This document shows, piece after piece, positions 51,845-53,154 of a stretch of DNA of 64,000 nucleotides. Below the pieces are notes generated by a model. It saw only the letters and a program-made list of their open reading frames with translations. It searched no databases and was not told the DNA's origin. Numbering within the stretch: the stretch's first letter is position 1; each line of letters opens with the position of its first letter. Source of the stretch: Streptomyces sp. HUAS 15-9 (GTDB lineage: Bacteria; Actinomycetota; Actinomycetes; Streptomycetales; Streptomycetaceae). Where the stretch lies: assembly GCF_025642155.1 (NCBI RefSeq), contig NZ_CP106798.1:2170001-2234000 (forward strand). The letters run 5' to 3'. The translations under genes and the position numbers were made by a program.

Positions 51845-52036
51845 GGGGCTCCTGTCCGGACGAGGGCGGGGTGTGCCTTCGGGCGACGGTGGCCGAGTGG
51901 TGGGCTGTGGTGTCCAGGGTAGATCGTGTTCCCGGAGCAAATGGGACGATCAGGTTGCCGGGGCGTGACGGATGGCCGGTGAGTCGAGTTCTTTATGAAC
52001 GCAATGTCGTATCCGAGCGGGTCAGAGTTAGGTGGA

Positions 52037-52061
52037 CCCGGGGGCGTAGCCTGCCCCCGGG
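52037..52061. terminator. Strong hairpin downstream of the tRNA-like RNAs
   Basis: A 9-bp stem (CCCGGGGGC 52037-52045 with GCCCCCGGG 52053-52061) and a 7-base loop. It is downstream on the minus strand of both tRNA-like RNAs and also precedes the FUSC gene. The rest of 51845-52104 shows no gene. Confidence 0.55.
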
Positions 52062-52104
52062 CCCGGAGAAGCCGCCCATCGTCGCACGCCGGCACGCTTG
52101 AGAA

Positions 52105-52206
52105 CCCGGGTCAGTCGTGATGTCGCCGCGTCCTACCTTTGGACCACCGCGCATCGAGCTGCGCGGGCAGGACTTGAACCTGCATCTCGACGTGCTGGGG
52201 CCCGAG
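52105..52206 (-). ncRNA. Second permuted tRNA-like RNA (YrlA-like, Ro motif not evident)
   Basis: Minus-strand order: anticodon-stem-like CGTCG (52192-52188), 4-base variable loop, T-arm GCAGG-TTCAAGT-CCTGC (52183-52167), acceptor 3' strand CCGCGCA (52166-52160), a 6-base joining loop, acceptor 5' strand TGCGCGG (52153-52147), D-arm GTCC-AAAGGTA-GGAC (52144-52130), then CGGCG (52128-52124). All seven acceptor pairs and four D-stem pairs form, and the last stem pairs with one G-U. The fold is a tRNA whose ends emerge at the anticodon stem. I do not see the GACGAAG/GTTGA pair beside the inner stem, so Ro60 binding is uncertain. Ends are approximate. Confidence 0.65.
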
Positions 52207-52255
52207 CCCGTTCGATCCGGCGATCGGCGGCGAATGCTGAGTCTGGAGCGAGAGT

Positions 52256-52366
52256 CTGAGATTCAACGCGGTCTGCCTCTGCCGTTTGGGCTACCGCGGC
52301 ACGGGATGAATGCCGCGGGGAGGACTCGAACCTCCACTGGAACCGCTTCGTCACGACAAGCCTCAG
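52256..52366 (-). ncRNA. yrlA: YrlA-type bacterial Y RNA with circularly permuted tRNA-like domain
   Basis: Minus-strand order: GACGAAG (52352-52346), stem strand CGGTT, variable loop CCAGT, T-arm GGAGG-TTCGAGT-CCTCC (52335-52319), acceptor 3' strand CCGCGGC (52318-52312), a linker of 11 bases, acceptor 5' strand GCCGCGG (52300-52294), a TA-GCCC...GGC D-arm with the conserved GG, stem strand GACCG (52273-52269), then GTTGA (52267-52263). All seven acceptor pairs and the five inner-stem pairs form. CTGAG (52366-52362) can pair with CTCAG (52260-52256) outside. GACGAAG fits the bacterial Ro-binding consensus GNCGAAN0-1G, and GTTGA fits the opposite strand. Such RNAs tether Ro60 to nucleases and mimic tRNA. 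Ends are approximate. Confidence 0.75.
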
Positions 52367-52389
52367 CTTCAGCTTGCGCTCCTCGCGCA

Positions 52390-52411
52390 CCCCGGTCTCG
52401 AGGGACCGGGG
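52390..52411 (-). terminator. Hairpin between the DUF7873-type gene and the Y RNAs
   Basis: On the minus strand CCCCGGTC (52411-52404) and GACCGGGG (52397-52390) form an 8-bp stem with a 6-base loop, 11 bases after the stop codon. It probably separates the protein gene transcript from the RNA unit. Confidence 0.6.
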
Positions 52412-52422
52412 ATTCTCGAAGG

Positions 52423-53154
52423 CTACCCGAACAGGTAGCCGAACACGGCGTCACCCACCCGCTGGTCGACGACGTCGGTGCCGTTCGCCTCTTCCCGGGC
52501 GAACTTCACGGCCTGCTGCAACTTCTCGACACGGTCGAGGAGTTCGTTGACGCGCCGGGCGGGAAGGGCGCCGGAGAACTTCACGGTGGTCCAGTACCCG
52601 ACGGGAATGTCCTCGTAGTACACCTCGACCTGAGCCGGGTGCTTCTCGGTGGCCTCGGCCTTGACGTGGTTCCTGGGCACCTTCTTGGTGCGCAGCGTCC
52701 GCACGGGCTCCGTCTTCCACGCGTCGGTGGACGGGTCCTGCGCCCAGGACTCGGAGGCGTCGAGGACGGGCAGCTTCCGTACGAAGGTGTTGAGGTCGAC
52801 GAGCTGCTTCTCCAGGAACAGCAGGTAGGCCACGGGCACGTCGGCGACGAGCACCCGCCCGTCCACCTTCACATCGGCCCGCGCGGTGCAGTTGGCCCAG
52901 TCCTTGGTGGCGGTCACGTCGAAGAGCCGGGTCAGCGTCGCCGCGGTCTCGCGCAGCACGTCCTCGGCCTTGACCTGCACCCGCGTGGACTCGGGCGGCA
53001 ACTGCTCGCCCTCCTCGTCCTTGGGCTGGTAGGTCCGCGAGATACCGGCCAGCAACGCGGGCTTCTGCAGGCCGTGGTGCGCGGACGTCAGGTCCTGGTG
53101 CGCCTTGGACTTGATGCCCTTCTCCACTGCGATGATCTGATTGAGTTTCGCCAC
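52423..53154 (-). CDS. Conserved actinobacterial protein (DUF7873-type)
   Basis: A 243-residue soluble protein starting MAKLNQIIAVEKGIKSKAHQ. I associate this start with a family labelled DUF7873, from memory and not from a search. It is rich in charged residues, with conserved stretches ISRTYQPKDEEGEQLPPES, TLTRLFDVTATKDWANC, LLFLEKQLVDLNTFVRKLPV and WTTVKFSGALPARRVNELL. No catalytic motif is evident. The GTG at 53154 is preferred: TACCGT ends 7 nt upstream and the upstream frame is Ala/Arg noise. It directly precedes the two tRNA-like RNAs on the same strand, so a link to Y RNA biology is possible. Confidence 0.85.
   Translation of the reverse strand: MAKLNQIIAVEKGIKSKAHQDLTSAHHGLQKPALLAGISRTYQPKDEEGEQLPPESTRVQVKAEDVLRETAATLTRLFDVTATKDWANCTARADVKVDGRVLVADVPVAYLLFLEKQLVDLNTFVRKLPVLDASESWAQDPSTDAWKTEPVRTLRTKKVPRNHVKAEATEKHPAQVEVYYEDIPVGYWTTVKFSGALPARRVNELLDRVEKLQQAVKFAREEANGTDVVDQRVGDAVFGYLFG

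What the first reader, a model, noticed from the sequence alone, without database searches (positions are those of the whole stretch)
52105..52366. Two tandem RNAs with a circularly permuted tRNA fold, interpreted as YrlA-type Y RNAs
On the minus strand the order is T-arm, acceptor 3' strand, short linker, acceptor 5' strand, D-arm, occurring twice. Both acceptor stems pair 7/7 (CCGCGGC with GCCGCGG; CCGCGCA with TGCGCGG), both T-loops are TTCRAGT, both D-loops have GG, and both anticodon-position stems pair across the whole element. Bacterial Y RNAs of the YrlA class are known to mimic tRNA in this way. The first RNA also has GACGAAG and GTTGA at the right places for Ro60 binding. Seeing two units with different acceptor sequences suggests each could mimic a different tRNA or recruit different partners.
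Basis: partly seen in the sequence, partly recalled or inferred. Interest (0 to 1): 0.9.

Follow-up and report, generated by a model that had tools for sequence, protein, structure and literature searches.

The report
Two-headed tRNA-mimic RNA beside DUF7873
Next to an uncharacterised protein gene (DUF7873) lies what looks like one unrecognised structured RNA carrying two rearranged tRNA-like heads; the same gene-plus-RNA pair occurs in many Streptomyces and in very diverse phages, apparently independent of the known Ro60/Y RNA system.

Summary
In detail: both minus-strand elements in 52105-52366 are complete tRNA bodies in permuted order (T-arm, 7-bp acceptor, D-arm, anticodon-position stem), far above chance. 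The YrlA reading holds only for the shape of the module. I read one ~320-nt RNA with two heads, the first optional, directly 3' of a DUF7873 gene (52423-53154). In 150 genomes of the window's genus, DUF7873 and the RNA occur in the same 69. 183 of 186 non-identical DUF7873 loci, including 42 of 45 phage loci, have a module within 800 nt downstream. A covariance model trained on Streptomyces and Nonomuraea scores 49-136 bits in 27 of 49 phage sources; a tandem-tRNA control scores 38.8. Compensatory changes are extensive. In phages the acceptor is often followed by NCCA. Proposed: a DUF7873 ribonucleoprotein whose heads are tRNA mimics. Transcription, processing and function are untested.

The parts
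52423..53154 (-). DUF7873 (PF25283) protein gene, 243 aa, GTG start inferred from homologues (the mechanical ORF runs to 53244)
   Evidence: Pfam 403 bits; alignments A1/A2; AlphaFold2 mean pLDDT 92.2
52390..52411 (-). G+C hairpin between the DUF7873 stop and the RNA core
   Evidence: read; stem letters vary with pairing mostly kept in homologues shown
52376..52388 (-). GCGC-GAGGA-GCGC hairpin, inferred 5' start of the conserved RNA
   Evidence: conserved; folded
52348..52375 (-). CTGA-repeat strand, paired with 52236-52266 in the minimum-energy fold (not tested by covariation)
   Evidence: conserved block; pairing
52268..52346 (-). tRNA-like head 1 (optional in homologues): anticodon-position stem 52341-52346/52268-52273, variable loop 52336-52340
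52319..52335 (-). head 1 T-arm
52312..52318 (-). head 1 acceptor 3' strand CCGCGGC, followed by discriminator-like A52311
52301..52311 (-). head 1 linker (starts ACCA in 20 of 76 or fewer distinct Streptomyces relatives; here ATTC)
52294..52300 (-). head 1 acceptor 5' strand GCCGCGG
52275..52291 (-). head 1 D-arm
52232..52267 (-). conserved core between the heads (TCTCAGACTCTCGCTCCAGACTCAGCATT block)
   Evidence: strongly conserved
52071..52231 (-). domain 2: basal helices 52226-52231/52071-52076, 52217-52222/52087-52092, 52201-52206/52105-52110, closing on head 2
   Evidence: RNAalifold with changes on both sides; counts; the third helix is given here by hand and RNAalifold pairs part of it
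52124..52192 (-). tRNA-like head 2: anticodon-position stem 52188-52192/52124-52128, variable loop 52184-52187
52167..52183 (-). head 2 T-arm
52160..52166 (-). head 2 acceptor 3' strand CCGCGCA
52154..52159 (-). head 2 linker GCTCGA
52147..52153 (-). head 2 acceptor 5' strand TGCGCGG
52130..52144 (-). head 2 D-arm
52034..52064 (-). long G+C hairpin GGGCCCGGGGGC-loop-GCCCCCGGGTCC, likely terminator (no T-tract; the simple terminator scan lists none)
   Evidence: conserved, with stem letters changing on both sides in homologues shown; negative

Best explanation
A gene pair makes a ribonucleoprotein: DUF7873 plus one ~320-nt RNA (about 52388 to 52071, then a terminator-like hairpin) carrying two tRNA-like heads in permuted order on a shared core; head 1 is optional. 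Each head is a complete tRNA upper half whose anticodon stem continues into the core, so it can enter tRNA-binding pockets but cannot decode. Shown by comparison: the structure, its covariation, genetic linkage to DUF7873, spread across phages and Streptomyces, independence from Ro60. Inferred: that it is one transcript; that RNA and protein form a complex; that host tRNA-maturation enzymes cut the linker between the acceptor strands (RNase P on one side, RNase Z or trimming plus CCA on the other), leaving CCA-tailed acceptor ends as in two-piece tmRNA; and that the heads then occupy a tRNA-binding partner, most likely as bait for nucleases or other enzymes that attack tRNA during phage infection, with DUF7873 holding the core. 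My estimates: real structured RNA 0.97; DUF7873 is its protein partner 0.85; processed linker 0.45; bait/competitor role 0.35.
For: DUF7873 and RNA in the same 69 of 150 genomes; model R1 at 80 bits or more in 68 of those 69 and in none of the 81 others. At least one module within 800 nt downstream in 183 of 186 DUF7873 loci, upstream control 5 of 186, dinucleotide shuffles 3 of 558. R1, built from 43 Streptomyces and 1 Nonomuraea sequences, matches 27 of 49 phage sources at 49-136 bits (three pairs among the 27 have identical scores, so about 24 independent). Covariation: 97.1% of cells paired, 33 of 35 pairs with changes on both sides, 337 double-change cells against 92 in shuffles (on a model-fitted alignment), and 30 of 42 pairs on a plain MAFFT alignment. 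Phage acceptors: 6.93 of 7 pairs with their own partner, 3.79 when partners are swapped (modules were pre-selected for 6 or more). NCCA right after the acceptor in 30 of 69 distinct phage modules and 20 of 76 Streptomyces head-1 modules. In phage contig L094 the RNA lies on the opposite strand, 1.2-1.5 kb from the DUF7873 gene, which argues for a separate, trans-acting RNA.
Against: No transcript, complex or processing was observed. DUF7873 is near-neutral to acidic (pI 5.4-7.0 in the 14 proteins printed), unusual for a strong RNA binder, and its model has no clear fold match. NCCA is found in only 3 of 83 Streptomyces head-2 modules and in neither head of this window (ATTC and GCTC). Discriminator and acceptor pairs vary, so charging by one synthetase is unlikely. 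9 of 49 phage sources give no R1 match at E 1. No PADLOC defence family in the seven proteins scanned. No promoter or T-rich terminator by simple scan. The window sequence alone folds no better than shuffles and does not form head 2's acceptor.
Confidence: 0.6

Rival explanations
1. A Y RNA in function: the basal stem binds a ring protein (DUF7873 in place of Ro60, or the distant Ro60 in trans) and the tRNA-like heads gate or tether an exoribonuclease such as PNPase.
For: Same permuted module as YrlA; sub-threshold YrlA matches; in phage contig L093 a Ro60 gene with Y-like modules lies about 2 kb from the DUF7873 RNA; YrlA is described as tethering PNPase to Rsr (PMC8394870, passages).
Against: 28 of 69 genomes and 28 of 33 phage records lack a TROVE match; DUF7873 and TROVE presence are not associated (both 41, DUF7873 only 28, TROVE only 39, neither 42; p 0.19); Ro60 letters not conserved; the window DUF7873 has no TROVE match in Pfam.
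Confidence: 0.2
2. A tmRNA-like machine: the processed heads are aminoacylated and enter the ribosome, for rescue or hibernation, with DUF7873 in the role of SmpB.
For: Same gene order as permuted two-piece tmRNA, whose transcripts are processed into two RNAs (PMC10085705, passages; the order itself is recalled); NCCA next to the acceptor in many phage modules; several phage loci sit among tRNA genes.
Against: No tmRNA match in the window or at the RNA in 10 loci; G3:U70, the alanine signal (recalled), in 3 of 68 phage and 0 of 70 Streptomyces/Nonomuraea distinct modules; acceptor identity not conserved. A tag reading frame was not sought.
Confidence: 0.15
3. A 3' UTR element of DUF7873 mRNA that controls its own expression, with tRNA-like folds as processing or stability signals.
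For: Directly 3' of the gene, with no promoter found in the region by a simple scan.
Against: In L094 the RNA is on the other strand over 1 kb away; in L101/L102 a further ORF-like stretch lies between; conservation is of an RNA with two large domains.
Confidence: 0.12
4. Decayed tandem tRNA genes or an integration-site relic.
For: The Rfam YrlA model and model R1 also score true tandem tRNAs (L004).
Against: ARAGORN finds no tRNA in the window; pairing is own-head 7/7 with extensive compensation; linkage to DUF7873.
Confidence: 0.01

Closest known systems
YrlA-class bacterial Y RNA (Rfam RF02553) with Ro60/Rsr
   Same: Permuted T-arm, acceptor, D-arm module closing on a basal stem in the anticodon-stem position.
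   Different: No Ro60 gene linked, no conserved Ro60 site, DUF7873 instead, ~320 nt with one or two heads, acceptor often followed by NCCA in phages; YrlA is described as 90-150 nt with a tRNA-like domain (PMC8394870 passages).
Two-piece (circularly permuted) tmRNA
   Same: Acceptor 3' strand precedes the 5' strand, with a removable linker (gene order recalled; processing into two RNAs in PMC10085705 passages).
   Different: D-arm with GG loop, up to two heads, no conserved G3:U70, no tmRNA model match. Linkage to SmpB was not examined.
Circularly permuted tRNA genes (mentioned in PMC10085705 passages)
   Same: 3' half precedes 5' half.
   Different: No anticodon arm, so no tRNA could result; part of a larger conserved RNA.
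DUF7873 (PF25283)
   Same: The window protein and the seven phage proteins scanned are members.
   Different: Pfam describes no function for the family; no paper in the library holds its name.

Membership tests
YrlA / bacterial Y RNA | Permuted tRNA-like module (T-arm, acceptor, D-arm) | tested here: met
YrlA / bacterial Y RNA | Encoded with a Ro60 (TROVE) gene | tested here: not met
   nearest TROVE ~113 kb; no TROVE match in 28 of 69 RNA-bearing genomes of the genus and in 28 of 33 phage records searched, out of 49 phage sources (IMG/VR records may be fragments, but 11 of 12 named phage records also lack it)
YrlA / bacterial Y RNA | Conserved Ro60-binding letters (GNCGAA..G and TTGA; consensus recalled) | tested here: not met
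   2 of 91, 2 of 91, both only in the window's own locus (two-headed Streptomyces loci only); a looser 5' motif in 12 of 183 loci
YrlA / bacterial Y RNA | Rfam RF02553 above gathering score | tested here: inconclusive
   27.2 and 19.6 bits against 69, but the Ro60-adjacent Y RNAs of the same genome also miss it (41.9, 36.2)
YrlA / bacterial Y RNA | Binds Ro60 and PNPase | not testable with these tools
   needs biochemistry
Two-piece tmRNA | tmRNA covariance model match | tested here: not met
   none in the window; none at the RNA in 10 loci
Two-piece tmRNA | G3:U70 alanine identity pair (recalled) | tested here: not met
   3 of 68 phage and 0 of 70 Streptomyces/Nonomuraea distinct modules
Two-piece tmRNA | Tag reading frame and SmpB partner | not tested
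   not sought
tRNA gene | Anticodon arm in canonical order | tested here: not met
   ARAGORN 0 in window
DUF7873 (PF25283) | Pfam score above cut-off | tested here: met
   403 bits against 27

The most novel reading that the evidence does not exclude
DUF7873 and its RNA are a third natural kind of tRNA-mimic ribonucleoprotein beside tmRNA-SmpB and Y RNA-Ro60: a two-headed RNA whose heads are cut open by the host's tRNA-processing enzymes to give two CCA-tailed mock-tRNA ends, carried by large phages and kept by Streptomyces to jam or deceive enzymes that act on tRNA.
Probability: 0.35. Interest if true: 0.95.

Novelty: new variant of a known kind. Interest (0 to 1): 0.85.

Why it matters
It joins a large protein family of unknown function (6495 relatives at E 1e-3 or better among the 7997 candidates scored) to a structured RNA for which Rfam gives no match at gathering score in the window or in 10 related loci, in Streptomyces and in phages named for actinobacterial, proteobacterial and cyanobacterial hosts. 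It suggests that permuted tRNA mimicry is not confined to Ro60 partners, gives DUF7873 a testable partner, and gives phage annotators a model for a stretch that is left blank or partly labelled as tRNA in the phage records opened here.

Tried and rejected
Rfam YrlA matches as evidence: rejected, because two ordinary tandem tRNA-Asn genes (L004; ARAGORN) score 41.3 bits, more than the window. Model R1 has the same weakness below about 40 bits (L004 38.8; Ro60 Y RNAs 34.1 and 30.6), so only matches of 49 bits and more are counted. 9 of 49 phage sources (L119, L122-L126, L208, L214, L216) have no R1 match at E 1, though the scanner finds modules there.

Link between CCA-coding phage tRNAs and NCCA in the modules: only suggestive; my test for CCA in ARAGORN tails was crude. 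Attempts to read a fixed tRNA identity from the discriminator and pairs 1:72 and 3:70 failed because they vary. The folding-energy z-score gave no support, and the single-sequence fold misses head 2's acceptor.

Misses: L094 (heads on the opposite strand), L101 (heads present by eye with T-loops outside the pattern, R1 50.3 bits), L121 (module about 2 kb downstream, R1 31.4 bits partial, below the tRNA control). The L122 scanner hit had a misplaced acceptor strand; a 7/7 acceptor is visible by eye. Rows dropped before that count: 230 loci with a DUF7873 hit; removing 6 repeats of the same genomes, the 20 repeats and partial hits left 202; removing identical downstream sequences or those under 450 nt left 186. 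Score cut-offs moved from 13 to 13.5 (37) to 13.9 (72). A3, A4 and A6 used 53 of 82, 44 of 51 and 37 of 55 listed sequences, chosen to thin close relatives and drop long linkers.

Full report
OBSERVATION. A scanner for T-arm, acceptor 3' strand, linker, acceptor 5' strand and D-arm with a GG loop finds both heads here; in 70 downstream sequences it found two modules in 37 and one in 33, against 0 hits in 350 shuffled sequences.

WHAT THE RELATIVES SHOW. A DNA search finds the element in 69 of 150 sampled genomes of the genus. In all 30 loci first fetched (the window's own included) a DUF7873 gene lies immediately upstream. The alignment changes the picture: the conserved unit runs from a GCGC hairpin just after the DUF7873 stop, through CTGA repeats, head 1, a strongly conserved core (CTCAGACT..TTGCTCCAGACTCAG) and head 2, to a long G+C hairpin. 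Head 1 is missing in many loci (for example L028, L030-L032, L034 and L035), where a plain hairpin or short stretch takes its place. This is why I read one RNA with two heads, the first optional, rather than two tandem RNAs. No transcript data were available to test that.

LINKAGE. DUF7873 is present in 69 of 150 genomes, the same 69 as (checked). A covariance model of domain 2 (R1) scores 80 bits or more in 68 of them and in none of the 81 others; the exception, G010, was found by the DNA search. Weaker R1 matches, up to 48 bits, occur in many genomes and include tRNA genes and Ro60 Y RNAs.

PHAGES. tblastn finds DUF7873 in 73 of 50,697 phage records, named for Vibrio, Gordonia, Rhizobium, Klebsiella, Serratia, Arthrobacter, Pseudanabaena, Rhodococcus and Microcoleus, at under 60% identity, and a scan of IMG/VR gave 32 loci, two of them cut short. 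The 12 annotated phage loci I opened mostly leave the stretch after the gene without annotation, or label part of it as tRNA or small hypothetical proteins. Over 186 non-identical loci (140 Streptomyces, 45 phage, 1 Nonomuraea), 183 have at least one permuted module within 800 nt downstream; the upstream control gives 5 of 186 and dinucleotide shuffles 3 of 558. The three misses have a module elsewhere or out of pattern (L094 on the opposite strand, L101 with atypical T-loops, L121 about 2 kb on). R1 matches 27 of 49 phage sources at 49-136 bits over most or all of the model, above tandem tRNAs (38.8) and Ro60 Y RNAs (34.1), so in those the core is shared too, not only tRNA likeness; three pairs of these sources have identical scores. 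The other 22 phage sources score below that line (13) or not at all (9).

COVARIATION. On a plain MAFFT alignment of 53 sequences RNAalifold finds T-arm, acceptor, D-arm, anticodon-position stem and basal helices; 30 of 42 pairs have changes on both sides. On 30 sequences with phages (alignment fitted to R1, hence biased towards it), 97.1% of cells pair, 33 of 35 pairs have changes on both sides, and sliding the partner by one base drops pairing to 41-44%. Head 1: 100% paired in 37 sequences, 5 of 7 acceptor pairs with changes on both sides; its D-stem does not vary and says nothing. Among 61 distinct phage acceptors pairing falls from 6.93 to 3.79 of 7 when partners are swapped (modules had been selected for 6 or more). 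Against this, the window sequence folded alone is no more stable than shuffles (z -0.60), and its minimum-energy fold makes head 1's acceptor but not head 2's, nor head 1's D-arm.

NOT A Ro60 Y RNA. The same genome has two TROVE genes and two tRNA-headed Y RNAs beside one of them; the window feature is about 113 kb from that gene. TROVE and DUF7873 occur independently in 150 genomes (both 41, DUF7873 only 28, TROVE only 39, neither 42; Fisher p 0.19). 28 of the 33 phage records searched have no TROVE match (33 of 49 phage sources were given); five do (contigs of L093, L095, L098, L100, and Rhizobium phage RHph_TM2_3B). RtcB is in 2 of 33.

HOW IT MAY WORK. The distinctive clue is the acceptor end. 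In the Rfam YrlA consensus that helix is closed by a short loop (alignment). Here the acceptor 3' strand is followed directly by NCCA in 30 of 69 distinct phage modules and 20 of 76 Streptomyces head-1 modules, but in only 3 of 83 Streptomyces head-2 modules and in neither head of this window; with equal base use chance would give 1 in 64. That is what a tRNA end maturing to CCA would look like. Permuted tmRNA genes give transcripts that are processed into two RNAs which work together (PMC10085705, passages). I therefore propose that the linker is cut by tRNA-processing enzymes, leaving mock acceptor ends. Because discriminator and acceptor letters vary, I think recognition is by shape, and a bait or competitor for tRNA-attacking enzymes fits phages best; a competitor role for the YrlA head was suggested in PMC7790460 (passages). 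DUF7873 (high-confidence model, no clear fold match) would hold the core, although it is not a basic protein. These last steps are inference.

LITERATURE. Library searches gave no paper with DUF7873, none with Y RNA, Ro60 and Streptomyces, and none with jumbo phage, tRNA-like and noncoding RNA. In the listings (4 of 4 papers; 20 of 271; 5 of 6; 12 of 55; 8 of 37; 3 of 3) I saw no title or opening abstract that describes this RNA. A jumbo-phage survey mentions TROVE proteins with a tRNA-like partner in a small subset of phages (PMC7824862, passages), and a Vibrio phage paper mentions a Ro60-related protein (PMC7765460, passages). The Y RNA papers I tried and one more on RNA repair are not held, so the claim of novelty rests on an open-access subset.

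VERDICT. A real, widespread structured RNA linked to DUF7873; a new variant of permuted tRNA mimicry, not a YrlA by the tests made.

Noticed in passing
L005 and L003 (own genome, C1:2109.6-2110.0 kb): Upstream of one Ro60 gene lie two tRNA-headed Y RNAs; by eye a third, headless Y-like stem sits between them.
   Followed up: partly
L004 1486-1637: Two tandem tRNA-Asn genes give a 41.3-bit Rfam YrlA match, a false-positive mode for any YrlA search.
   Followed up: yes
L093 5001-8700: A phage contig with DUF7873 and its RNA, then further Y-like module hits (one overlapping a predicted tRNA-Pro) and, about 2 kb on, a Ro60 gene: two tRNA-mimic systems side by side.
   Followed up: partly
L124 3692-3764; also L125 3716-3786, L122 3597-3669, L216: In several phages a canonical-looking tRNA follows head 2 directly.
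   Followed up: no
L126 3518-3597: Klebsiella phage FBKp24: the annotated tRNA-Sup-TTA overlaps the 5' part of head 2 of the RNA and may be a misannotation.
   Followed up: partly
L101 and L102, downstream of DUF7873: A stretch that looks by eye like an HNH endonuclease ORF lies between DUF7873 and the RNA, possibly a homing insertion.
   Followed up: no
L116 375-903: Gordonia phage GodonK has a tmRNA match (90.3 bits) where the record lists only a tRNA-His at 454-515.
   Followed up: no
L121 5230-5450: Microcoleus phage: by eye, head 2 carries further tRNA-arm-like hairpins inside its acceptor linker, about 2 kb from DUF7873.
   Followed up: no
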